A stretch of 64,000 nt of DNA from Meandrina meandrites (Eukaryota > Cnidaria > Anthozoa > Scleractinia > Meandrinidae): NCBI GenBank assembly GCA_963693305.1, contig OY855903.1, positions 32,269,598 through 32,333,597 of the forward strand, written 5' to 3'. A program made the translations under genes and the position numbers. Position 1 is the first letter of the stretch; every line of letters starts with the position of its first letter. The notes beneath the pieces were generated by a model. That model did not search any database, was not told the origin of the DNA, and saw only the letters and a program-made list of their open reading frames with translations. Shown here one piece after another: positions 3,273 to 46,019 of the stretch.

Positions 3273-6200
3273 CACTCTTCCTAAAAGGAAAGAAAGCAAA
3301 TATCTTCAAAAACCTGAAAACAGAGCTGAAAGAGAAAAAAGGTGTAAAATGGTTTATATCAGTACAAGTAAAAATGGTAAAATATAGGCCAGATGGTCAA
3401 GATGAGTTCGCCACACCCCATTTCAGAGGCAACTGCCAGCGACTGACGAATTTCAACGCGCTCCCCGATCAATACGAAGAATGCGTGGAAAAAATAAAAG
3501 AATCATTTCAGAGTTACCAGCGTGAAGGGAGCGGTTGGCAATTGCTAGAGGTAAGATTACTCCTTTTCTTTTACGACAAAGTTCTTCCTACAATTTGACT
3601 CTTTCGTTCTAAATATAAAAGTATTTCAAACTAATAGACTCTAGTGATTTCCACTTAATTAATTTTTTTGCCTGTTAGGTGTTGAAATTAGACCTCGGCA
3701 TTGCTGTGTATACCCCACTCCATGGTTCTAGCTACGTGAAACTTCCCAAGGAGCTGCATGACAAAAAAGCGATACTGAATATACAGAATGACGATCAAAA
3801 GTGTTTCGTCTGGAGTGTACTTGCTGCCTTGCACCCAGTTAATCGGAAAGACCAACCTCATCGCCTTCACCACTACAGACCTTTTGAAGGAGAGTTGAAC
3901 GTAAATGGCATTGAATTTCCAGTGAAAGTAAGTGACATACCAAAATTTGAGAAACAAAACCCAGCGCTGAGCATCAACCTCTTTGGATATGAAGAAAAAG
4001 AACTCTTCCCGTTGTATATAACGAAAGAGAAAAAAGAAAACCATGTAAACTTAATGCTTATCTCGAGTAATGAGACGAAACACTATTGTTTGATTAGGAA
4101 TTTAAACAGGTTATTGTTTTCGCTGATAAAATATAAGGGTAAAAAGTTTTTCTGTGTATATTGTTTGCATGGGTTTGTTAGAGAGGATTTGTTATTAGAA
4201 CACGAACCCCACTGTAGCAAAAACGGACCACAAAGAATCAAATTACCAGACGAAAATAATGATGTATTATATTTTAAAGATGTTCAGAAACAACTTAAAG
4301 TACCTTTTGTCATTTATGCAGAGTTCGAGTCGATTTTAGTGACGTGTGACGACCAAAGATTAGACCCTAGTGTTTCGTTTACGCAGAAAACGCAAGTGCA
4401 TCAACCTAGCGGTTTTTGCTATACGGTGGTTTCTGAGGTAGAGGGTTACGATACTGCACCTGTTGTGTATCGTGGGGAGAACGCAGTTGACAAATTTTTA
4501 GACCATTTATTGCACGAAGAAAAACGAATTAAGGAAATTTTAGAACATGTTGTCCCGATGTCGATTAACAGGAATGAGGAGCAAGCTTTTCAAAGGGCAA
4601 CACACTGTCACATTTGCGGAGATGTGCCTGACTCTGATCGCGTCAGGGATCACTGCCATCTGACGGGAAAGTATCGCGGAGTGGCCCACAGCGATTGTAA
4701 TCTTAACTACAAGTTTACCAATCGCATACCTGTCGTGTTGCATAACCTACGGGGCTATGACTCACATCTGATCATGCAAGGGCTGGGAAAATTGAAAGGA
4801 GTTCCTATCACCTGTATACCCAACAACTCGGAAAAGTACATTTCGTTTACTGTTGGGGACTTGGTTTTCATTGACTCCTTAAAATTTATGAATGCTTCTC
4901 TTGAAAAGCTTGTCTCCAATTTAGCAAAGGAGGGAGATGGTAAATTTCGCATACTTAAGAAATACACGCCCGTTGAGAAGGTACCGTTACTCTTGAGAAA
5001 GGGGGTCTACCCTTATGAGTATGTGGACAGTTTTCAGAAATTTCACGAAACGAACCTCCCACCCATTGAAGCATTTTTCAGTACTTTATGAAATGAAGGA
5101 ATAAGTGTAGAGGATTATGTTCATGCACAAACTGTGTTTACCGAGTTTCAATGTCAATCACTGGGAGATTATCATGACCTTTACCTGAAATCTGATGTTT
5201 TACTGTTAGCAGATGTATTTCAAAATTTTCGCGACATATGTTTAAACTATTATCAGCTAGATCCAGCTCACTTTTACACCTCTCCCAGCCTAAGCTGGCA
5301 GGCCTGTCTAAAAATGACGCAGGTAGAACTAGAACTCATTACCGACCCAGACATGTACATTTTCATTGAGGAAGGTCTTAGGGGTGGAGTTTCTATGATA
5401 TCGAATAGATATTGCAAAGCAAACAACCCCTATATAGCGAGCTATGACAAAGATCAGGAGACGAATTATATCATGTATTTAGATGCAAATAATCTTTACA
5501 GGTGGGCTATGTCACAACCGTTACCCGATAGTGGGTTTGTCTGGTTGAGTGAAGAGGAAATTGAAGAATTAGATGTGTCAAACATCGCCGATGACAGTGA
5601 GGAGGGGTACATATTGGAAGTGGATTTGGAATACCCTTGTAGTTTACACGAGCGTCACAACGACTACCCACTGGCCCCCGAGAAGATGGTGGTGAAGACC
5701 GACATGCTATCTCCCTACTGCGATCAGATAGCAGGTGAATTACACTTGAAATCTGCGTCAGTCTCTAAACTTGTTCCAAATCTCGACAACAAGACGAAGT
5801 ACATTTTGCATTACCGCAATTTAAAGCTCTACCTCAGTTTGGGTATGAAGTTGACAAAAGTTCACCGGGTTCTCAGCTTCCAGCAATCTTTCTGGCTCAA
5901 GTCCTACATTGACTTCAACACCGAAAAGCGAAAACAAGCTTCTAACGACTTTGAGAAAGATTTCTTTAAACTGATGAACAATTCTGTCTTTGGGAAAACG
6001 ATGGAAAATCTACGAAAACGCGTGAATGTTAAACTTGTGAATGATGAAAAAAAGCTCAAGAAACTGACCGCCTCCCCTTCCTTCGACTACTTCAGAATTT
6101 TTGCAAACGAGTTGGCCGCAGTGAACATGAAAAAACCCACGTTGTACCTCAACCGCCCCATCTACGTTGGCTTCAGCATACTGGACTTGTCTAAAACATT

Positions 6201-6804
6201 GATGTACGATTTTCACTACAACTATATCAAGGTGAAATACGACAACAAGGCAACTCTGCTTTTTACTGACACAGACAGTTTGTGTTACAACATACAAACC
6301 AAAGACATTTACAGAGATATGCAAGAAGACTCCGAACTGTTTGATACGTCAGAGTACTCAAACGATCATTTCCTGTTCAGCACGAGCAACAAGAAAGTTC
6401 TGGGAAAGATGAAAGACGAGACACACGGAGTTCCTATCGAAGAGTTTGTTGGTCTTCGACCTAAAATGTACTCATTACTCTATACGGAAAACAGCAAAAC
6501 GGTTGAGAAAAAAGTGGCGAAGGGAATTGCGAAGAATGTGACAAAAAGGGAAATAAGACATGAACACTACAAAGAGTGCCTCTTCAACACAAAGCAGCAG
6601 ATGGCTTCCATGCACCAAATACGAAGTTTTCAGCACAATGTCTACTCTATTAAACTGAACAAAATTGGGCTGAGTCCTTTCGATGACAAACGATATATTT
6701 TGGGTAACGGTTGTGACTCATTAGCGTATGGACACTACTTATTAAGAGACTCTAATTTAGATCAACATGATCAAGAACTGATAGAATTATTAGCGGATTT
6801 GTAA
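3218..6804 (+). pseudogene. Protein-primed type-B DNA polymerase with embedded HNH/endonuclease-VII-like motif; one intron, one nonsense codon
   Basis: Replicative polymerase of the element. Frame open from 3218 (an ATG at 3374 could serve if the zinc-finger ORF is separate), a 128 nt intron at 3551-3678, then 3679-6804 in one frame interrupted by an in-frame TGA at 5089-5091. Exonuclease motifs: YAEFES near 4315 (family norm D-x-E, so the first acidic residue is E), NLRGYDSH near 4745, and YLKSDV near 5185. A zinc-binding cluster with CHICGD and RDHCHLTGKYRG (about 4605-4690) resembles recombination endonuclease VII/HNH inserts seen in cnidarian PolBs. Polymerase motif A is YLDANNLYRWAM near 5475, motif B KLMNNSVFGKTMENL near 5965, and motif C FTDTDSL near 6262. 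All catalytic aspartates of motifs A and C are present. Apart from the single stop and the frame change upstream the gene looks intact, so inactivation is recent, or the stop is suppressed or a sequence error. Confidence 0.85.
3551..3678 (+). other. Spliceosomal intron in the PolB gene
   Basis: Donor GAG/GTAAGA and a T-rich acceptor ending CCTGTTAG/GTG. Removing 128 nt joins 59 codons counted from the ATG at 3374 to the frame beginning at 3679 in phase 0, restoring continuity of the family's N-terminal domain. A nuclear intron shows the gene is transcribed and spliced by the host machinery. Confidence 0.8.
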
Positions 6805-9708: not shown

Positions 9709-10096
9709 TTTATGATGTTTAATCATATTTATGTCCTCCTTCATTATCAATTAAACAAATGAGAACGCACGGCTTAGCCCAGCGTGCAAACCGAAAAATC
9801 ACAATTTCGAGCTCAGTAACTAAGTCTGTCCTTTTTGTGTGTGTGTTTTTCTTATGTGCATGTGTTCACTTATCTGATATATTTTCACATAGGCACCTTG
9901 CACTATTAATACTTAGGTTAATCGTAAGCTTGCACTGTCTCAACTTTATATGTATTACCGATACGTCTAGTTTTAAGCAACTGTTATTCTCTATTGTCCA
10001 ACTGTTTTGTCGCATCAGCCCAACAGCGTTATACTATATCTTGATTCAATTCTCCGTTCGCGTTGAAAGAAATCTAGCCGCTACTCCGCCTGGCTT
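9709..10096 (+). other. Spacer between LINE ORF1 and ORF2
   Basis: A 388 bp inter-ORF region, T-rich, with an open frame from 9759 that has a hydrophobic middle but no similarity I recognise. Probably noncoding linker of the LINE. Confidence 0.35.
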
Positions 10097-13000
10097 GTGT
10101 CTCTTAAAACCAAAAACAAATCAGATGCTGTGAATACTGCCAATGCTTTCGATCTAAAATGCCTGTCTTTAAATGTTAGAGGCCTCAACAAGTCGATCAA
10201 ACGCCGAACCATTTTTCGTTGGCTACATAAACAAAATCATCACGTCACTTTTTTACAAGAATCATACTGCTCCAAAGAGAGCGCAGCCATTTGGGAAAAC
10301 GAGTGGGGTGGCAAAGCTTTTTTCAGCCATGGAACAAATCATAGTAAAGGTGTGATAATACTAATTAACCCCTCTGTGGAAATCAAAGTCGAGAAACTTA
10401 TCTCGGACAAACAAGGAAGGGTCATTATTTTAAAAGTCTCCTTTGATGAAAAAACCATTGTTCTCGTCAACATCTACGCACCTAATGACGTCGTCCAACA
10501 AGTTAATTTTTTCCAAAAACTTAATAAACAACTCGAAGAATTTCCCCAAGATACAATTATAATCGGTGGAGACTTTAATTGCGCACTTACCTCAAAAGAC
10601 AAAAGTGGCGGAAACCCCGTTTCTATAAAATCACCTGTCATTAAAGAAATCAACACGCTTTGTGATTCGTATAATTTAGATGATTTATGGCGAAACCTCA
10701 ACCCAGATAAGCAGAGTTTTACCTGGAGAACAAAATCGTTTAAAATTCAGTGCCGATTAGATTATTTTTTTGTTTCACAAGAATTGATTCAATCCGCGAA
10801 GAAATGCGATATCGTCCATGCACCTGAATCCGCTGTGTTTTTTGTTCTCCAGTCTGACCACCAAAAGCAAAAAAGAGGACCTGGTTTCTGGAAATTTAAC
10901 ACTGCCCTTCTTAAAGATGAAAAATACATATCAGCAATTAAGTTAAACATTCCTATCTTCAAAAAGAAATATGAGGAGACGCAAGATTTAGGTTTAAAAT
11001 GGGATCTCATAAAAATGGAGATAAGAGGATTTACGATTCAATACTCTAAACGAAAAGCAAAAAAACATCGAGACGAAGAAAAAATATTGCATCAAAAAGT
11101 GAATAACCTTCAAGCCAATGCTGAAAAAAACCCACATGACAGAAACATCATACTTGAACTTCAAAGTGTCAGATCACGTCTTAAAAAAATCACTTTAACA
11201 AAAACCAAAGGCGCAATCCTAAGAAGCAAAGTGAGAGGGCACGAAGAAGGGGAACGCAACATAAAATATTTTTACAACTTAGAAAAATGCCACCATGCCT
11301 TAAAAACAGTATCAAAACTCAAAGTGGGCGAAAACTCCTACATAGAAGATCAACTTGAAATATTAGAAGAAGAAAAAAACTTCTATGAGTTACTATACCG
11401 CTCAAACAATATCAACTGTAAGAAATTCAAGAATTCGCCTTTCTTTAATCCAGAAAACGTAACCGCACTCAGCGAAGAAGAAAAGGAAACCTGCGAAGGA
11501 TTGGTTAACGAAGAAGAATGTATAAACGCGCTTAAAGACTTTAGCAACAACAAAACCCCAGGCACCAATGGTCTGCCGGCGGAATTTTACCGATTTTTCT
11601 GGCCCGACATCTGCCTTGACCTGCAAGCCAGTTACAACTACGCTTTTCAACATGGCACGCTTTCTATAAGCCAAAAGCGTGGAATAATTTCGCTTATACC
11701 GAAAAAAAACAAGGATAAAACGATCCTGGAAAACCTAAGGCCCATCTCACTTCTAAATGTTGACTACAAAATTCTCACTAAAGTAATAGCCAAAAGAATA
11801 GAAAAAGTTTTGCCAACATTAATAAACCCAGACCAAACAGGTTATGTTAAAGGACGCTACATTGGCGAAAACGTCAGATTGATTTACGACTTATTACAAT
11901 ACACAGATAAGCTAAATAAAAAAGGCATCGCTATTTTTTTGGACTTTAAAAAAGCCTTCGACTCGATTGAATGGAACTACCTTCTAGAAACACTACGGCT
12001 CTTTAATTTCGGCCTTGATATCCAAAATTGGATAAAAATTTTCTATAATAATGTCACAAGCTGCGTTTTAAACAACGGCCACGCCTCTACCTTTTTCTCC
12101 CTACAGCGAGGAGTCAGACAAGGTTGTCCATTGTCTGGCGTCCTCTTTGTTCTCGGCATAGAACTTCTCTCTCGATCCATAAGAAGTGATCCCACTATCA
12201 AAGGTATTCAAGTCAACAAACATGAGCTAAAAATAAGCCAATATGCCGACGGCACAACGGTGTTTGTTCGTGACCTTGACTCCGTCAAAAGCCTATTGAA
12301 GTTGTTGAATGAATTCAACGAGTGTTCTGGCCTAGAAATTAACAACACCAAAACCGAAGCAATGTGGTTAGGCGAATGGAAAGATAAAACAGATTAACCT
12401 TTCGGTTTTAAGTGGCCAAAAGAACCAATCAATGCTCTCGGTGTTTCTTTTTCTTACAATCATGCAAACGCCGACAGACTCAACTTCAGCAAAAAAATAC
12501 TTAGCCTTGAAAAAACACTTAACACTTGGAAACGGAGAATTGATTTATTCAGCCTCCATGCTGCCAGTTCCAGTTCACTATATCCAAGAAATCAATAAAT
12601 TAATCTTTGACTTCATATGGGTGGGAAAGCCCCCTAAAATCAAAAGAAATACCCTGATTGGAAATAAAAAAGACGGCGGTTTAAAAATGTGCGATTTTAA
12701 CATCATGGAAAAAGCTCTCAAAATAGCTTGGGTCTACAGAATACAAGACGATTCACAAGCTTCCTGGAAGATAATCCCCAACCAGCTCCTGCACAACCAT
12801 GGAGGCCTCGCCTTTTTAACAAAATGCAACTTTCCAAGAAATATACTTGACCAAGAGAAGAAGCTTCCATCCTTTTATAAAAAAATGTTAGAGTATTGGT
12901 GCGAGTTCAAAACCTCAACAGGAATCGCCTGTAAAACGCTTCCAAAAAACGAGCTATTATGGAACAACAGAAAAATTCTTGTAGAAAACAAACCTGTTTT

Positions 13001-13811
13001 TTACAACACATGGTATCACGCCGGTATTACCAAGATAAGCGACTTATTAAACTCAAACAGCGACTTTCTAAAACTGCACGAGTTTGCATTAAAATTCAAG
13101 CTGAATGTCCCTTTTACTAAATACTATGGTCTGGTTAATGCAATCCCAAAAGAATGGAAAGCAAATTTTAAAAACCCAGCTCCAAGTGTCGAACACAATA
13201 ATACCCCTGTCAACACTCTAAAAACCAGTTCTATTTACACCGCCCTTTTAAAAACCATCTTCATTTCCCCCACCGCTGAATCCAAAATTCTTCGTCATGG
13301 TTTCACAAAAAACACCGTCCAAAAAGTCTATCGCATGCCATTTACGGTCACAAATGAAGTAAAAATCATAATGTTTCAGTACAAAGTGATCCACAATGTG
13401 CTTCCAACCCGCGTCACACTTTATCGAGACGGCCTCTCAGAAAACCCCATATGCAACTTATGCAACGTCGAACAACAAACTCTGCATCACCTACTCATAG
13501 AATGCACTCTTACAGTCGATTATTGGACCTTGTTTCAAAACTGGTGGTACCAAAAAACGAATGAAACAATAAAGTTATCCGAAACCAATGTACTTTATGG
13601 CTGGCATGATAGAACAAAGCTTTGGCAAGCACTCAATTATTGTCTACTTTTAGCTAAATATTGTATTTTTTGCACAAGCCTTCGCGGAGATGTTTTAGAC
13701 TTTCAATGCTTTTTACTGTTACTTAACGGAAAACTTGAAATTCTTAAAGAGATCGCGACTGCGAAAAAAGCACTACCAAAATTTTTTCGCACTTGGGCTG
13801 CTATACTTTAA
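10097..13811 (+). pseudogene. LINE ORF2 (APE endonuclease + reverse transcriptase), catalytically damaged and truncated
   Basis: The endonuclease domain shows SLNVRGL, LQESYC, GGDFNCAL and SDHQ. Reverse transcriptase follows with RPISLLNVDYKILTK, FLDFKKAFDSI and QRGVRQGCPLSG. The active-site box reads YADG (codon at 12251-12253) where the family requires YADD, so a metal-binding aspartate is missing. An in-frame TAA sits at 12395-12397. Around 12535-12545 reading jumps to the frame that ends at 13811, with about 50 bp of the usual sequence apparently absent. No in-frame ATG lies near the start; the first codon here is GTG. The C-terminal portion retains the cysteine cluster. Family placement as L1/Tx1 rests on motif style. 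Confidence 0.85.
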
Positions 13812-23000: not shown

Positions 23001-23694
23001 GTGGAATATTCTCTGATTTTAGCCAACTTGGCATATGGCCTTATTGGCTGAGTATCAGGCAATATTCCGCACAATTTCGCAGGATAATTGTTAACTATTC
23101 ACCTTCCAGCAAAATAATAATCGTTCATAGGAATATATGATTAAAAATCATCTTTCTGGGTTATTTTATCGCACTGTTTAAGTTTATACTTAAACAACTA
23201 TATATTCAACTTGGTGGCCAGTAGTGGATATTTACCTCGCCGCTTGAACAATACGTATACCTAAATTACTTGTCATAATCTCAATAAACACTTACGCCTA
23301 GAGGTGTAGTGAACAGAAAGATGTGTAGTATAAAGTTTATTAAGATTTATTGTGTTTAGTGTTTATATGCTTAAACTACAAAGGCAGATAAAGTGATTTG
23401 TTCTTAACAAAATTAGATTTACTTAAACTGACTATGTAGTGGATTTTGTGAAAGGGAATGTTGACATGGCAACCATGAAAAACAAAAAAAAAATTCCTTC
23501 TCACCAGGTGAGAACATACAGCACTTATTTTGGGCCAATCCTCTTTTTTATTCATTTGTTACAGTAAAACAAACTTGACAGGGGCCACCCAACATTTTTT
23601 AGCCAATCGCAAGACTAGCTTGACATGTTTTGGTAGGACATGTACTTCTCCTTTAAGCTTGAGTATGAAATGTATATCAAGATGTTTGTAAATA
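20046..23694. other. Noncoding, homopolymer-rich intergenic region
   Basis: Contains long C/G tracts at 20491-20512 (22 C), 21672-21682 and 21830-21844, and TTAGTC-like short repeats near 20080-20170. Short frames on both strands look like chance and several run through the homopolymers. No gene, RNA or clear transposon terminus recognised. Confidence 0.4.
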
Positions 23695-24435
23695 GTGAAT
23701 TCAATTCTCCAATTTATATCTGTTACAGGTCATTTTAACTTCAGGTTGATAAAAGTGCTGGAGCTGAAACCCCCGGACAGCGAGAAGCTGCTGCTGACAC
23801 TTGAGAACAAAAACAACTATGTCGTGCATTACAGAAACTTGCAGTTTTATCTGAAGCAGGGCATGAAACTGAAGTGCGTGTACAGGGTGTTGGAGGTCGA
23901 ACAAGAATGCATGATGGAGCCGTACATCCGGATGAATACAGAATTCAGGAAAAAAGGAAAGAACGACTTTGAAAAGAACTTTTATAAGCTAATGAATAAC
24001 TCAGTTTTCGGCAAAACCATGGAAAACCTGCGTAATCGTGTTGACATAAAAATAGTGCGCAGCAATGAGACAGACAAAATAAGGAAAGTGGTTGCAAGCC
24101 CTTTGTACTCAAGGCATGTTATATTTTCAAATGACCTGGTCGGAATCGACATGCGCAAAAGCCGGCTGCTGCTCAACAAGCCGGTCTACACGGGGATAAC
24201 TATCCTTGACAACAGCAAGATCCTGATAGACGACTTTTTCTACAACCATCTCAAAAAGCAATATGGCCAAAGGTGCGAGCTCTTGTACACAGAAACAGAT
24301 AGCCTTCTGCTTGAAATCAAAACGGATGATGTCTACAAAGACATCAAATAAAATGAAAATCAATATGATACGAGTGACTACCCGAAGGAGCATCCACTCT
24401 ACTCAAATGCGAACAAAAAGGTCTTAGGCAAAATG
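23695..24435 (+). pseudogene. Older Polinton PolB, left fragment (motifs B and C), cut by the younger Polinton
   Basis: Translation from about 23745 is PolB: NYVVHYRNLQFYL, motif B KLMNNSVFGKTMENL near 23985, KPVYTGITILDNSK and motif C reading YTETDSLLL near 24293. The first aspartate of the DTD signature is E here, and an in-frame TAA follows at 24349-24351. Reading then continues in frame to KKVLGKM at 24435, where the younger element begins. The gene resumes at 46020. It is of the same PolB subfamily as the 5134-6804 polymerase. The 5' part is absent in the window. Confidence 0.85.
24430..24435 (+). repeat. 6 bp target-site duplication, left copy (AAAATG)
   Basis: AAAATG lies immediately left of the first base of the 24436 terminal repeat and is repeated directly after its right end at 46020-46025. 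Six-base duplications are the hallmark of Polinton/Maverick integration by an rve integrase. Removing the element plus one copy rejoins the older PolB frame exactly. Confidence 0.93.
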
Positions 24436-24631
24436 AGTAGTAAGGGGGGACCCTTTGGGGAGTAACCAATCAGTGAGCCGTATTTGGCCCACGTGACAGC
24501 TCTAGACCAATCAGAGGAGAGCGTGACGTCAAACGGTCGCCTAGCAACCAAGGGGATTGGAATGCGGAAGTGACGTAACCGGAAGTCACGTGAGCGGAAA
24601 CGGAAACGACTACATGAATTTCGAACGTGAT
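24436..24631 (+). repeat. Left terminal inverted repeat of the Polinton (196 bp)
   Basis: Matches the reverse complement of 45824-46019 over the full 196 bp with only a handful of substitutions. It includes CCAAT boxes (ACCAATCAG and GACCAATCAGAGG), CACGTGAC and TGACGTCA-like sites, so it may also act as a promoter. Confidence 0.93.
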
Positions 24632-25582: not shown

Positions 25583-25634
25583 TTTTTCTCAGTCAAGGAA
25601 AAAGACGCAATATTGTTTGAACACAAATGTTTAT

Positions 25635-28410
25635 TTAATCAAGATGAATGGCATAATACAAAATTTCGTAATAAGGCATGCTTTTTCTAAACAACGAGAA
25701 TGGACTGTAAGTTAAATAAATACGAAAATTACAAGGTAAATGTAACAATTGAATAGCTTGCATTATGTGAGTATCTACAACCATGGAAGCATTTCTAGGT
25801 CCCACTACAAGAAGATGAATTCTCAATTGGCTGTGCTCGATATTCCATTCTTCTATACAATCTATAATAGCGTTGAAAAGGCTCTTGATCGAGAAGCAAA
25901 ATCTGAAAGGTAACTGAAAAATTGGGAAGTGTTTTTACAAGTCAAAGAAACGGTTATCGTAGAAAAAGCCATCATGTATGTAAGATAGGCTAGTTAATTT
26001 ATACATGGGTAGTGGAATATTGTCATTACACGAAAAAATAAATTTGATTTTTGTATCTAAAAAGTCTTGAGTGAATTGAGTGGGTAAAAGGGAGTTAAAT
26101 AGTCTGATCATGTCGTTCCTGTGACGATATCTCAATTCTTCATTTGCATCTAAGAAGATAATAATTCGATTGTTTCTGTGATCGATAAATCTATCATAGT
26201 GTTCTAGAATGAATTGTAGAAGATGATTAACATCAATTGGACTCAATCCCAAATTTATCTGAAAGAATAAAAAAAGGTGTAAATTAAAAATGATAGTAAC
26301 TTCGCTTGTATTCAGTGTATAGTTGAGAAAAGATATTGTATTTTGTAGTGAAAGCACCTATCTCAACATGTTCTATCAAGAAGCGAAAAGGTGTTATTGG
26401 AATGCTTTCTCTTTTCCAAATAACGGTGAGATTAATTTCGTCTGGTAAATATTTCAGAAATTGTTCTTTCATTTCTTCATACACTGCTTCTCTATCAGTG
26501 TCTTCATTGGCAATCAGTTTAAAGTATAATCTGCTTCGTCCTCGTTCTCGCGGCAGAGTTGGCGAATAAAATTCTGTGATCATCGTCAATAGGTTTTGCA
26601 GGTCGCGTCGATGACAAGGAAATGGTAACTAAAAACAGACAAAAAAAGTTCAAGTTATTTGAGTGAAAACCCATGCCTTTCCATTTGATAGCGTTCCAAA
26701 AGAAAAGACTTCTAGAGTGAAATCGATGCGATTGGTAAATTTACGCATCAAAGCTTGCATACAAACAACAAATCTATCGTAATCGCGCGTGTGTTCATTA
26801 CAAAATATAGTAAACTTAATGCTTGGTTCGTGTCCTTCTTCTGTCCTTTCAGCAACTTGTCTTAGATTGTTAATAACGCGAAGTAATTTCCATGGTGAAG
26901 TGTGTATAAACTAAAAGAAACGAAAATACGAGTCAAGCGAATGTGCTTACAATAGTACCATAGGTATGTTGAGTTACTGCGTTTTCTATAATTATAAAGT
27001 AAGAGTCCATATCATAGTCTACAGAGTGATACAAGATGTGAACGTCTTCATCTACGGCAACTTGATCCGTCATGCGATCAATCAAGTCCAAGTAATGCTT
27101 TCTTCCCATAACGATAACCATATGATTATTCACGGATTGGGTAGATAGTGTGTTATAGTAAGTCGATATACTTCTTTTCTCTCTTTCGCAACACTAAAAG
27201 AGAATATACAAGTAAAAAAGTTTTTTTTTATTGGTTCCTTTTACATGTGCATAATGTCATCGCTGTTCACGTCAATAGTACTTGTGAACATGCGAAAGTT
27301 AACGAGATGAAAACGATACGCTTTAATGAAAAACGAGTTAAGTTGAGTACAACGGTAAAATCTCACTGTGTTGCGTTTACATTGAATACGCAAGGCTAGG
27401 TGCCCTCCAGTATTGATGAATTCATTTGATCCCATGAATACATGAACTTGGTAAGCTGGTCGTTTTTGGTTCACTTTGTCGGTGCTGACTTTGTAACTCC
27501 ATAAAAGTTTTCTTTGAAAATCCGTCAACTGAAATTATCAAACGAGGATAATTTTCATTAGATCGAAAAACCACGGGGAAAATTTCAATCCATAAGTCCA
27601 CAAAGTTTGAACGTGAAATCGATACACAATCGTATCATCTTGATATTTTTCCCGCAATTTGGTTTTGATTACATTTAGCATCTTGTGAAATCCAAGCAAA
27701 CACTGAATTTCTTTGTCGTGCAACTGGAATGAAAAAACAGGAAGTCTTTTTTAAAAAGCAGCTAGTATTATTCTTTGCAATAGTAACCGACTATTGTAAG
27801 AGGCAAATTTCAGTTCTCGAGGTGCCACCATTTGCATGAACTCTTCTAAAGGTAGAGATTGAAGGAAATCACGAGTGTCCATTTGTTGTTGAAGATTCAT
27901 TTTTTTGACAACATAGTTGACGTGCAGTAACAATTGTAAGTCATACCAATTTGTCTGAAATAAATGAAAAAGGGGATTATTTTTTTTGCAAAGGGTGGCA
28001 TGAAAGAGAAAATAATAGATTCTTACCATCATGAGTTGTTCTTCCAGTGCTGGCGAGTCAAGCAATGCTCTCAATCTAGCAATGATTTGGTCACGTGACA
28101 TTGTCATCACTTCATTGCTGATGGCCTGGTGGTCAATCATTTCTGTGGGTAAGGTGACTTGCACCGTTTGTTGTTGCCCTCGTGCCACTGTTGTATTCAA
28201 GGGGCGTCTGCTCATTCCACAGTTTGCATTTTGACCTTCCAGCTCCCATCGTTGTTGGAAACGTTTGTGAACGAAATTCCCACAACATGGAAGACGCATG
28301 CTTCTGGATGACAAATTTTCTTCATGGTTATGACATATGAAACAATCATAGCTTGTGCTACAAATTTCGGGCTCCTCTCTCTTCAGTCGTTTGCTTTGTC
28401 TTCCAGCCAT
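25635..28410 (-). CDS. Multi-exon gene: degenerate RING-like N terminus followed by tandem ~80-residue exon modules
   Basis: Exon 1 (28410-28027, 128 codons) starts at an ATG 37 nt after a TATATAAA box. It has a RING-like cluster (CFIC, LPCCGNFVH, NCGM) in which one or two expected cysteines are absent. It ends ATG/GTAAGA; exon 2 begins at 27954 after TTTATTTCAG. Further open modules begin directly after T-rich (T/C)AG signals at 27723, 27528, 27193, 26910, 26628, 26258 and 25902/25913, and each runs to a stop within a short gap before the next. Exon 27193-26951 is 81 codons and 26910-26671 is 80, both phase 0. Most modules share a pattern: helix with LL..I, a hydrophobic beta strand (IKFTIFCNE, RIIIFLDANEE, LRIHLLVVG), a second helix, then another strand (INLTVIW, KIKFIFSCND). 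AATAAA overlaps the final stop. Three junctions (27723, 27528 and 26258) do not keep frame, so the copy may be partly decayed. Function unknown. Confidence 0.55.
25903..25938 (-). other. Ultra-short intron (36 nt) before the last module
   Basis: Donor CTT/GTAAAA and acceptor ACCTTTCAG/ATT give a phase 2 junction that keeps frame; an alternative acceptor at 25914 would not. Confidence 0.4.
26629..26670 (-). other. Ultra-short intron (42 nt) of the RING-module gene
   Basis: Donor TGG/GTTTTC (weak), acceptor GTCTGTTTTTAG/TTA, phase 0, contains an in-frame TGA. Confidence 0.45.
26911..26950 (-). other. Ultra-short intron (40 nt) of the RING-module gene
   Basis: Donor ATT/GTAAGC, acceptor GTTTCTTTTAG/TTT, phase 0 on both sides, in-frame stop inside. 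Joining preserves the open frame through two modules. Confidence 0.55.
27955..28026 (-). other. Intron 1 of the RING-module gene (72 nt)
   Basis: Donor ATG/GTAAGA and acceptor TTCATTTATTTCAG/ACA, phase 0, joining exon 1 to the exon at 27954. Confidence 0.65.
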
Positions 28411-28446: not shown

Positions 28447-28560
28447 TTTATATAGAGACCGGTAACCACGTGACGGGGGTCACGTGACGGGGGGATACCC
28501 CCCCTCCCCCCCGGTCGTGACGTCACGGTCACGTGTCAGAAAATGAAATGTATAAATATA
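28447..28560. promoter_or_regulatory. Bidirectional promoter between two RING-like genes
   Basis: TATATAAA on the minus strand (28447-28454) serves the 28410 gene and TATAAATATA on the plus strand (28551-28560) serves the 28586 gene. Between them lie CACGTGAC boxes, a GGGGGGATACCCCCC palindrome, G/C tracts and TGACGTCA. About 90 bp of it recurs, inverted, at 38248-38327 upstream of PolB. Confidence 0.7.
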
Positions 28561-28585: not shown

Positions 28586-29032
28586 ATGATGGAGGCTATC
28601 AAAGAAGAGAAACTGCGTACCATTTGCTTGAATCCTTCTGATTTTCAAGATGAATATACCTATTGTTGTCGGGAACCGATTCATTACAATTGTATGGAAA
28701 CGTTGATGTACGATGACCATTTGGGGAGACGTTGGAACGAAATAAAGTGCCCCTTTTGCAAGATGCTGCTTAATAGCAAAGAGTGTGACGCAAAGGTAGA
28801 AGCAGAGGAAAAGCGCTTGGCCAACTTCCCTTACTTTGAGGATAAGAAGTTTATGCGGATGATGAAGAATGTCTGGGGAGATCGTTTGTTTTTGAAAAAT
28901 GGCGAGGACCAGTGTTTCTATGGCGAAATAAAGAATCAAGATGACAAGCCCGAGATTGTCTACCTTGGAAGTAACAAGAGTTACGCATTAGAGCGCGCAA
29001 AGAGGTACGTGGATTCGTTTAACTTTCATTGA
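28586..29032 (+). CDS. RING/PHD-like zinc-binding protein
   Basis: 148 residues from an ATG 26 nt after TATAAATATA. The N-terminal half has a cross-brace-like layout: ICLNPSDF, then YCCREPIHYNC, then CPFCKMLL, close to a RING-variant with Cys-His spacing and a final C-P-x-C. The C-terminal half is unassigned and charged (WGDRLFLKNGEDQCFYGEI). AATAAA at 29068-29073. It is divergent from the RING-module gene and convergent with the PLA2 gene. By family resemblance it could be a ubiquitin ligase acting on host factors, but no partner can be read from the sequence. Intact. Confidence 0.6.
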   Translation: MMEAIKEEKLRTICLNPSDFQDEYTYCCREPIHYNCMETLMYDDHLGRRWNEIKCPFCKMLLNSKECDAKVEAEEKRLANFPYFEDKKFMRMMKNVWGDRLFLKNGEDQCFYGEIKNQDDKPEIVYLGSNKSYALERAKRYVDSFNFH

Positions 29033-38373: not shown

Positions 38374-41300
38374 ATGAGTCAAGCAGAAGAAGAAGAAGGT
38401 GAGAGATATTTTCGCTTTGAATTTGAACAGTTCAGAGATCGAGAAGCTAGAAGCTATGGCGTTCGCAGAAGAAGTTATCATTTGAGAGTGCAAAATCCTG
38501 TTGAAAGTCGACCCATTGGCCATGCCAGCATTGTACGTCAGTTTGAAGAAGGATTGGCCGAGGTCATTGATCGCTTGGTCGAGGACTTGCCTGAGCAAGA
38601 TAGAATTCAAGTCTACTTTGGGTCAAGACGATTGCGAAGCGCTCACACCTCGGCGCACGTGTCGGTGGGCGATTGGAGGCAATCGCTAGGGCCTGCCCGA
38701 CAGATATTGGATACTATTTCTAGAATGTTAAACTCCAACGAGAACTTGACATGGATGAGACCATGGAGTTGGACTTGACGCACATTACCATGCTACAGCC
38801 TGGCACGGGAAAACGCAATTTACCGTTTGGTAGTGCCAATTACACTGAACTTTTGAAACAAAAGAAATCCATCATTGTGATCAAAAACCAAGATCAACTA
38901 TGCTGTGCCCGAGCTCTCGTGGTGGCCAAAGCCAAAGTGGATGACGACCCGGACTATGATAGCATCAAAAGGGATCTACCTTTTCAAAAAACAAGAACCT
39001 TAACTTTGCCCATTGGTCCATGCGGATTGAAAGAGATCAACGTCTTTCAACAAGCCTTGTCCGAGTATCAGATTATTGTTGTCTCGGCTGAACATGGTCA
39101 TTCTGTCCTTTACAAAGGAGAGAAACGAGACAAACAATTGATTCTTTTATCTCACGATGGCCATTTTGATGTCATTACCTCGTTACCTGTTTTTTTTCAA
39201 CCACGGTTATTACTGTCTTGAATGCGAGAAAGGGTTCAACCATGACACTTTGAAACACCACCGCTGTGAAGGCATCAAATGCGCAGGGTGCCATCAAACA
39301 GATTGTGATGACTTTCAGATGTGGGGAAGGTCCTAGTTACCACAAATCACCTGTTCCTATTGTCAGCGTCGGTTTTATGGCGTGATTTGTCAAACCAATC
39401 ATATGATCAGAACCACCAGCGGACAGGATGCAGACCATGCGGTGAAAAACAGCGTGTGCAACACGCAACGTGTGTGCTCGGAATGTGGCAAAGCAAAACG
39501 GACAGCCCACCAATGCTGCGAGAGCGAGTGCCCGTGTTGTAAAAAGATGGTGAACTTATTGCAACATCAGTGTTTCATCCAAACCGTGGACTTGAACGAG
39601 GAGAATATTTTGACATCGAGGCCCGCCAAGATACAGGTCAGCACGTGGCCAACCTTGTGTGCGCCGAGACGGATCAAAGTGACGAACAATTTACATTCAA
39701 GGGGGACAAGTGTTTGGAACAGTTTTTGGCCTTTGTCCATGGCATTGCCAACAAAAAGAACGTGTCCAAGACCATTGTCGTAGCCCATAATTTTAAAGGC
39801 TATGACGGTTATATGGTCATGGAAGAACTGTATCGTCAGCACGCGACCAATCTTGAGATGATCGTCAATGGAGCCAAACTCTTGATGGTGGAATTGCCGA
39901 GGGTCAAATTTATAGACTCGATGAACTATTTTCCGATGGCGTTAAGCAACTTTCCCAAAACCTTTGGCCTGAAAGAACTGAGAAATGGCTTTTTCCCTCA
40001 TTTCTTTAACACGATCCAGAACCAGATGTACGTGGGACCGATGCCGTCTGTGGAGTACTACGACCCGGACGGGATGTCGCCAAGTCGACGAGACGAGTTT
40101 ATGACTTGGCACGCTGCTCGAGTGACCGAGCAACACGTGTTTGACTTTGCGCACGAACTGTTGACTTATTGTCAATCGGACGTACGACTGTTAAAGGAAG
40201 GCTGTATGAACTTTCAGCGAGAATTTTGTGCCATTGCAGGATTTAATCCCATGCAATACTGCATCACCATTGCCTCGGCTTGCAACGTGGCGTACCGATG
40301 CAATTGGATGCCAGAGAAGCAGATCACCGTGGAACCCCTCACAGGTTGGCGAGGAAATCACAACCAATCGCACACGGCCCTCGAGTGGCTGTACTGGGAA
40401 GAAAGTCGACTAGGTCAGGAAAGTGAACTACCAAGGATTGCCCATGTGGGGAACCGAGGAGAACGCCGATTGATGCACGGGCGCCTGCACGAGTTCTTGG
40501 TAGACGGGTACGACGAGAAAACCAAAACCGTCTATGAATTTCAAGGCTGTTTCTTTCATGGCTGTTTGACCTGTTTTCCAAACCGTTCGCAAAAACATCC
40601 CAAACAACTTGGCAAGACCATGCACGTGGTGCGCATGCAGACCCTGTCCAAAATCATGAGGATGAAAGCATTGGGCTACACCGTCAAAGATATGTGAGAA
40701 TGTGAATGGAGCAAACTAAAAGAAAACGATCCCACCGTAGCAGAATTTGTAAAATCCTTGGACATTGTCCCTCCGTTGAACCCTAGAGATGCCTTTTTTG
40801 GAGGCAGAACCAATGCCGTGCAGTTGTACAAGAAGGTGGATCAAGAGCAACAGATCCATTACATGGACATCACTTCATTGTATCCATTCATCAACAAGAC
40901 CGGGTGTTATCCCGTGGGACATCCCGAGTACATTGACCAACCTGGGCACGTGAATATCTCGCCCTACTTTGGTCTGGTCAAATGCCGTATTCTGCCACCT
41001 TACGGACTATACCATCCGGTGTTGCCCTACAGACACGAGGACAAATTGACTTTTCCATTATGCCGGAAAATGATTTTCGCGCGTCTCTCCACAAGCGGTC
41101 AATGCATTGCAACCATACGCCGACACAGCGTGCCTTGACAGGGACGTGGTGCACACCTGAACTGCAGAAAGCGTTGGAGAAAGGGTACGAGATCTTATAC
41201 CTGCACGAAATATGGCACTTTGAAAAGGTCAGTGAAGACCTATTCAAGAACTATGTGAACACGTGGCTTAAAATTAAGCAAGAAGCTTCGGGTTGGCCGC

Positions 41301-42138
41301 GAGAAGGAATGACAGAGGGAGAGAAGACAGAGTACGTTGAAGATTATTACCATCGCGAAGGCATTTGTTTGGATCCTGACAAAATTGTGAAGAATCCTGG
41401 GTTGCGTTCACTGGCTAAGCTCATGTTGAACAGTTTCTGGGGCAAGATCGGGCAGCGCTCCAATCAAACCAGAATGACCCAATGCACCAAACCCTCTGAA
41501 TTCTTTGAAATGCTTCGAGACGACAGTCAAATCATCGAACGCATCGAAATCATCAATGATGACATGTTGGAACTATTTCACAAGTTTAAAACTGAATGTG
41601 ACGCAATGCAAACGAACGTCAACATATTCATTGCAGCCTTACGACTTGTCACGCCAGATTGAAATTGTACGAAGCCTTGGAAAAACTAGACGAGCGCATC
41701 CTTTATTTCGACACTGACTCTGTCATATATACGTGGCAACCTGGACAAGAACAAATTGACAGTGGAAATTATCTCGGTGATTTCACCAGCGAATTGAAAG
41801 AAAACGAGTACATTACAGAATTTGTAGCCGCTGGCCCAAAAAATTACGCCTATGCAACGAACAAGGGTGTGGTATGCTGTAAAGTGCGAGGTTTTACATT
41901 GAACACGCGTGGCCAAGCTGTACTTAATTTCGCGCCCGTCAAAGACTTGGTCTTGGCCGAAATCCTACAACCGATGGAAACGCGACGAACATTGACCCTT
42001 AGAAACCTTCACAAGATAGTACGAGAGCCTGTCGAGAAAAGATTAAGAACGGTCTCGCAAGACAAACAATATAAACTGGTGTTTGACAAACGAGTGTTGA
42101 ACGCATTCAATACAAAAGAAGCTGAAATGTTGCAATAA
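38374..42138 (+). pseudogene. Protein-primed type-B DNA polymerase of the Polinton, multiply broken
   Basis: ATG 38374 begins an N-terminal domain (YHLRVQNPVESRP, LRSAHTSAHVSVGDW). Later pieces give a Cys/His-rich zinc region (YYCLECEKGF, CSECGKAK), exonuclease motifs FDIEA near 39612, HNFKGYDGYM near 39786 and YCQSDVRLL near 40170, polymerase motif A YMDITSLYPF near 40862, motif B KLMLNSFWGKIGQR near 41417 and motif C YFDTDSVIY near 41705. All catalytic residues of the recognised motifs are present. Breaks: frameshifts near 38745, 39195 (T8 run), 39600, 41105 and 41640; in-frame stops at 39334-39336 and 40695-40697. AATAAA overlaps the final stop (42134-42139). Length of the joined frame would be roughly 1,250 residues, normal for the family. 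It cannot yield a functional enzyme as it stands. Confidence 0.9.
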
Positions 42139-45823: not shown

Positions 45824-46019
45824 ATCACGTTTGAAATTCATGTAGTCGTTTCCGTTTCTGCTCACATGACTTCCGGTTACGTCACTTCCGCATTCCAATC
45901 CCCTTGGTTGCTAGGCGACCGTTTGACGTCACGCTCTCCTCTGATTGGTCTAGAGCTGTCACGTGGGCCAAATACGGCTCTCTGATTGGTTACTCCCCAA
46001 AGGGTCCCCCCTTACTACT
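45824..46019 (-). repeat. Right terminal inverted repeat of the Polinton (196 bp)
   Basis: Reverse-complement partner of 24436-24631; the low divergence between the two ends argues for a fairly young insertion. Confidence 0.93.

What the first reader, a model, noticed from the sequence alone, without database searches (positions are those of the whole stretch)
25635..28410. Multi-exon RING-like gene built from repeated ~80-residue exon modules with very short introns inside a Polinton
At least seven open blocks each begin right after a T-rich (T/C)AG and share a helix-strand-helix-strand hydrophobic pattern, as if one exon had been duplicated and diverged. Four junctions fit GT-AG introns of 72, 40, 42 and 36 nt that keep frame; 36-42 nt is unusually short for an animal. 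Modular repeats behind a RING-like domain would suit a fast-evolving recognition protein, but that function is pure inference. I know of no described Polinton gene with this design. Three junctions do not keep frame, so decay or wrong splice choices remain possible.
Basis: partly seen in the sequence, partly recalled or inferred. Interest (0 to 1): 0.88.

Follow-up and report, generated by a model that had tools for sequence, protein, structure and literature searches.

The report
One RING head, eight alternative tails
A virus-like mobile element in what looks like a coral genome carries a gene that appears built to join one zinc-binding RING exon to any one of eight different end exons, so that one gene could make a set of different proteins; this is read from sequence and has not been seen in RNA.

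Summary
The blocks are real: eight of them, on the minus strand, behind one RING exon inside a Polinton bounded by inverted repeats. Each block starts right after a pyrimidine tract and YAG, in the frame left by one strong donor on the RING exon, and each ends with its own stop 9-47 nt before the next acceptor. Block ends mostly lack usable in-phase donors; block 7 has none near its end. The best candidate (the 40-nt intron) is absent from 2 of 7 genomic copies. Sequence after each block's last possible donor still evolves as coding (0.36 of neutral N/S, p=1e-4). Related RING-plus-block genes occur in other Polinton families of this genome, and an Oculina patagonica gene model ends after RING plus one block, at the junction predicted for one such family. 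Best reading: one donor, eight alternative terminal exons, a RING ligase-like head with exchangeable tails. No transcript shows it, tail function is inferred, and the window copy has two substituted RING cysteines.

The parts
28027..28410 (-). RING exon (128 codons), ends in phase 0; two conserved zinc-ligand cysteine positions are substituted in this copy
   Evidence: coding constraint 0.33 of neutral, p=0.0015
27955..28026 (-). 72-nt intron RING to block 1, donor GTAAGA (kept in 6 of 6 copies that have the region), acceptor CAG
27751..27954 (-). block 1, 67 aa plus stop
   Evidence: 0.40, p=.037
27538..27723 (-). block 2, 61 aa plus stop
   Evidence: 0.42, p=.053
27241..27528 (-). block 3, 95 aa plus stop; AATAAA 8 nt after the stop, in an A-run
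   Evidence: 0.56, p=.14
26933..27193 (-). block 4, 86 aa plus stop; relative of first block of L037
   Evidence: (0.68, p=.26)
26650..26910 (-). block 5, 86 aa plus stop
   Evidence: 0.58, p=.20
26284..26628 (-). block 6, 114 aa plus stop; open in 7 of 7 genomic copies
   Evidence: 0.31, p=.0016
25935..26258 (-). block 7, 107 aa plus stop; no in-phase GT in the last 200 nt before the next acceptor
   Evidence: (0.39, p=.014)
25635..25913 (-). block 8, 92 aa plus stop
   Evidence: 0.45, p=.067
25630..25635 (-). AATAAA poly(A)-like signal overlapping the stop of block 8
28449..28454 (-). TATA-like box about 40 nt before the RING exon ATG
   Evidence: consensus match only
24436..24631 (.). left terminal inverted repeat arm of the Polinton
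   Evidence: 98% complementary to the right arm
45824..46019 (.). right terminal inverted repeat arm

Best explanation
One transcription unit with one coding head exon (RING) and one main splice donor, followed by eight alternative terminal exons. Each terminal exon has its own pyrimidine tract, YAG acceptor in phase 0 and stop codon. An mRNA joins the RING exon to one block; blocks further down remain in the 3' untranslated part before a shared poly(A) signal. The gene would give up to eight proteins of about 190-240 aa with the same RING and different tails, mostly of a helix-strand-helix-strand-strand make-up. Shown by sequence: phases, stops, donors, coding constraint, relatives. Inferred: that all eight acceptors are used. 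More weakly inferred: that the RING is a ubiquitin ligase and each tail binds another target, so that the array is a kit of exchangeable adaptors.
For: Eight tandem acceptor-ORF-stop units against a shuffle maximum of 3. Strong donors (GTAAG or GTGAG) before the first block in 6 of 6 loci examined; block-internal in-phase donors score at most 5.2, blocks 5-7 at best -1.6, -2.7 and none. Best in-block donor not kept in copies. Pooled constraint 0.45 of neutral, p=2.4e-7, shifted frames 0.99 and 1.48; after the last in-phase GT 0.36, p=1e-4, without block 7 0.34, p=0.0024. Stop positions kept in the copies while pyrimidine tracts vary in length. L039 has one block only, and Oculina model P0018 joins RING to a single block at the predicted junction and ends at its stop.
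Against: No RNA evidence. Protein searches gave 6, 9 and 11 hits; none shows a RING joined to a second or later block. A second Oculina model, P0020, leaves the block after about 30 residues and runs into other sequence. The gap between the best in-block donors (5.2 in block 4, 5.1 in block 3) and the weakest head donor (6.1) is small, and the matrix is approximate and recalled. Blocks 2, 3, 4, 5 and 8 are not significant for constraint one by one (p .053-.26). The block finder looked for phase-0 ORFs only, and one ORF in L035 is in another phase. L010 and L011 are close kin.
Confidence: 0.75

Rival explanations
1. All blocks are spliced in series into one long RING-plus-repeats protein through very short introns.
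For: Blocks are in the same phase at their starts, as duplicated symmetrical exons would be; block 4 has GTAAGC in 5 of 7 copies.
Against: No in-phase donor near the end of block 7, only poor ones in 5 and 6; block 4 donor lost in 2 of 7 copies; sequence after the last in-phase GT is coding up to the stop; L037 block ends lack good in-phase donors too.
Confidence: 0.06
2. Mixed use: a few serial joins (block 4 to 5, or 3 to 4) beside alternative acceptors, and perhaps two 3' ends, one after block 3 and one after block 8.
For: GTAAGC in block 4 and GTGAGA in block 3 score 5.2 and 5.1; AATAAA 8 nt after block 3's stop.
Against: Block 4 donor not kept in 2 of 7 copies; the AATAAA sits in an A-run; a 40-nt intron would be unusually short for an animal (recalled).
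Confidence: 0.12
3. Only RING plus block 1 is made; the other blocks are relics of former copies.
For: Block 1 is nearest to the donor; some related loci have one clear block (L039, L035); the RING of the window copy and of L008 is damaged.
Against: Blocks 6 and 7 are constrained (0.31 and 0.39, p .0016 and .014) and block 6 is open in 7 of 7 copies; acceptors keep their tracts.
Confidence: 0.07

Closest known systems
Drosophila mod(mdg4) (and lola): common exons joined to one of many alternative 3' exons (PMC12692577, start of abstract in listing; lola from recall)
   Same: One common 5' part with a protein domain, many alternative C-terminal exons each giving another isoform.
   Different: mod(mdg4) makes over 30 isoforms by trans-splicing from exons with promoters of their own; here the blocks lie 9-47 nt apart behind one head exon, in a mobile element, and cis-splicing is proposed. 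Heads and tails are of other families (BTB and FLYWCH there, recalled).
Adenovirus major late transcription unit, alternative 3' splice site use (PMC3283702, start of abstract in listing)
   Same: One donor side, several alternative 3' splice sites, 3'-co-terminal messages; a virus related to Polintons (recalled).
   Different: In adenovirus the common leaders are untranslated and each message brings its own start codon (recalled); here the common exon is coding and gives each product its RING.
Polinton/Maverick elements of vertebrates (PMC8097293, passages)
   Same: Inverted repeats, PolB, integrase, protease, ATPase, capsid gene.
   Different: No introns were observed in genes of intact vertebrate elements; this gene has at least one intron and eight acceptors.
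RING-H2 ubiquitin ligases such as Arkadia (PDB 2kiz)
   Same: Profile match over positions 17-74, E=7.6e-5.
   Different: A CC pair stands before the H-x2-C, and N or K where RING-H2 has its fourth ligand (ligand scheme recalled); the tails have no known relative.

Membership tests
Polinton/Maverick element | Terminal inverted repeats around the gene set | tested here: met
   196-nt arms, 98% complementary, 21.2 kb apart
Polinton/Maverick element | PolB, rve integrase, adenovirus/C48-type protease, A32-like ATPase, double jelly-roll capsid protein | tested here: met
   PolB, rve, C48 above Pfam cut-offs; A32-like ATPase at 21.3 bits, just below 22.8. Capsid gene named from position and 72 genome matches, no Pfam hit
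Polinton/Maverick element | Target-site duplication | not tested
   not examined
RING-type ubiquitin ligase | Sequence similarity to RING domains | tested here: met
   six-family profile hits Arkadia, E=7.6e-5; single members hit zf-RING_2 below the cut-off (E .006-.024); the window copy alone does not
RING-type ubiquitin ligase | Full set of zinc ligands | tested here: inconclusive
   C-x2-C, CC-x4-H-x2-C and C-x2-C are shared by most families, fourth ligand position is N or K; two cysteines substituted in the window copy, present in relatives
RING-type ubiquitin ligase | E2 binding and ubiquitin transfer | not testable with these tools
   needs a biochemical assay
Gene with a common head exon and alternative terminal exons (mod(mdg4)-like plan) | One strong donor, several downstream acceptors of the same phase, each followed by an ORF with its own stop | tested here: met
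Gene with a common head exon and alternative terminal exons (mod(mdg4)-like plan) | Transcripts joining the head to different terminal exons | not testable with these tools
   no RNA reads at hand; only single-block gene model P0018 of another species
   block 7 has none near its end; blocks 5 and 6 at best -1.6 and -2.7

The most novel reading that the evidence does not exclude
Coral Polintons carry a combinatorial ligase gene: one RING head spliced to any of up to eight exchangeable tails of an undescribed alpha-beta-alpha-beta-beta domain. The tail set is gained, lost and shuffled between element families (block 4 here is the first block of another family), so that a mobile element keeps a switchable set of target-binding adaptors for host factors or rival elements.
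Probability: 0.35. Interest if true: 0.92.

Novelty: new variant of a known kind. Interest (0 to 1): 0.8.

Why it matters
It would be a diversity-generating gene inside an animal Polinton, where intact vertebrate elements were reported as intronless (PMC8097293, passages). It is a compact natural case of one donor facing eight tandem acceptors, and it points to an undescribed domain family paired with a RING. The reading is directly testable with long RNA reads from a coral that expresses a family member.

Full report
What is there. The gene lies on the minus strand near the left inverted repeat of a Polinton bounded by repeat arms at 24436-24631 and 45824-46019. The element has integrase, C48/adenovirus-type protease and PolB above Pfam cut-offs, an A32-like ATPase just below, and a capsid gene matched at 72 places in the 551-Mb genome. 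A RING exon (28410-28027) ends in a phase-0 donor GTAAGA. Eight blocks follow: 27954-27751, 27723-27538, 27528-27241, 27193-26933, 26910-26650, 26628-26284, 26258-25935, 25913-25635. Each starts directly after YAG, is open for 61-114 codons, and closes with a stop; from there it is 27, 9, 47, 22, 21, 25 and 21 nt to the next block. The last stop overlaps AATAAA. Eight such units were found where 1000 dinucleotide shuffles gave a mean of about 0.25 and a maximum of 3.

Serial or alternative splicing. If all blocks were joined in series, every internal block would need an in-phase donor near its end. Donors before the first block score 6.1-10.2 in six loci (window, L035, L036, L037, L039, L061; in L036 the donor sits on a linker exon). 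The best in-phase GT within 200 nt of a next acceptor scores, for window blocks 1-7: 3.2, 2.6, 5.1, 5.2, -1.6, -2.7, none; for L037 3.8 and 3.6; for L061 2.1; for L036 -3.9 (the matrix is approximate and recalled). No 36-nt in-phase intron was found.

Coding constraint. Seven copies (window, L008-L013) were compared; L011 lacks the 5' part and drops out of units where it does not align, and L008 has a deletion in the RING exon and one base missing in block 1. Over all blocks there are 73 synonymous and 105 nonsynonymous variants, 0.45 of the neutral ratio, p=2.4e-7; shifted frames give 0.99 and 1.48. By unit: RING .33 (p .0015), B1 .40 (.037), B2 .42 (.053), B3 .56 (.14), B4 .68 (.26), B5 .58 (.20), B6 .31 (.0016), B7 .39 (.014), B8 .45 (.067). 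After the last in-phase GT of each of B1-B7, where a serial model must place intron, the ratio is 0.36 (28 synonymous, 32 not, p=1e-4); for B1-B6 alone 0.34 (16, 17, p=0.0024). Sites are counted, not independent events. Length differences between copies fall mostly in the pyrimidine tracts; a 15-nt deletion at the block 7 acceptor in L009, L012 and L013 keeps the phase (the script set the boundary wrongly there, so these three print as broken).

Relatives. The RING exon query has 19 matches in the genome: the window, five near copies in six rows, and 12 divergent rows at 30-40% identity, two of them with stops inside; several of the 12 are copies of one family. Eight of the 12 lie within 12 kb of a capsid match (searches compared). 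Downstream of the ones read: L037 has three blocks, with 29 and 17 nt from stop to next acceptor and AATAAA on the last stop; L039 has one; L061 has three, the third 1.1 kb further on, and no capsid match nearby; L036 has one clear block and a second ORF behind extra linker exons; L035 has one block in phase 0 and a second ORF that is not. In L033, L034 and L040 no clean array was seen. The block finder sought phase-0 ORFs only. P0018, a 211-aa gene model of Oculina patagonica, joins ...RVTPE to FPFSV..., the junction predicted for the L039 family, and ends at that block's stop; another model, P0020, leaves the block early and is against, or mispredicted.

The block domain. In the leave-one-out profile test, shuffles beating the real sequence were 0 of 300 for B6, B7, L061_2 and L061_3, 1 for B5, 3 for L061_1, 5 for L039_1; the other ten (B1-B4, B8, L035_1, L036_1, L037_1 to 3) had 22-207. 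AlphaFold2 on P0007, the L061_2 block without its first five residues, gives helix-strand-helix-helix-strand-strand (pLDDT 66, pTM 0.50). Block 6 gives a like order at pLDDT 54, too low to rely on. No Pfam family above cut-off and no PDB relative were found for the blocks.

How it likely works. One promoter (TATA-like box at 28454-28449) drives one pre-mRNA. The RING donor pairs with one of eight acceptors 72 to 2113 nt away. The chosen block gives the C-terminus and stop; the rest is 3' untranslated. As blocks carry few usable donors, little or nothing downstream would be spliced. The RING profile matches ubiquitin ligases, so the products are probably RING proteins with exchangeable tails; that tails choose targets is inference. 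The window copy has two conserved RING cysteines substituted; relatives with them in place exist. The host is coral-like by its relatives (Oculina), not identified.

Compared with what is known. mod(mdg4) shares the plan of a common head and alternative 3' exons, but trans-splices (PMC12692577, start of abstract). Adenovirus uses alternative 3' splice sites (PMC3283702, start of abstract). Intact vertebrate Mavericks were reported without introns (PMC8097293, passages). The listings I searched did not show this gene (see Tried and rejected).

Noticed in passing
28586-29032 (+): Divergent ORF, RING-like by a weak zf-RING_2 match (E 0.022, below cut-off), with a TATAAA at 28551: two RING-like genes seem to face away from one short promoter stretch.
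   Followed up: partly
27227-27240: AATAAA within an A-run 8 nt after the stop of block 3; could mark a second 3' end, or be chance.
   Followed up: no
L035, gene-sense 1458-1637: Second ORF (EWNVTQLL...) after a T-run and AG that is not in phase 0, kept in several copies of that family; does not fit the simple plan.
   Followed up: partly
39337-42138 (+): PolB of this element lies in several overlapping frames, so the window copy of PolB looks broken or spliced.
   Followed up: no
23692-24351 (+) and 3679-6804 (+): PolB-like ORFs outside the inverted repeats (my reading of the translations), perhaps pieces of other elements.
   Followed up: no
10067-13811 (+): LINE-like ORFs with endonuclease and reverse transcriptase look (my reading).
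   Followed up: no
   Followed up: partly
L061 (G000:C1:38047500-38053500): RING-plus-block array with no capsid match nearby: either a remnant or a gene outside a Polinton.
   Followed up: no
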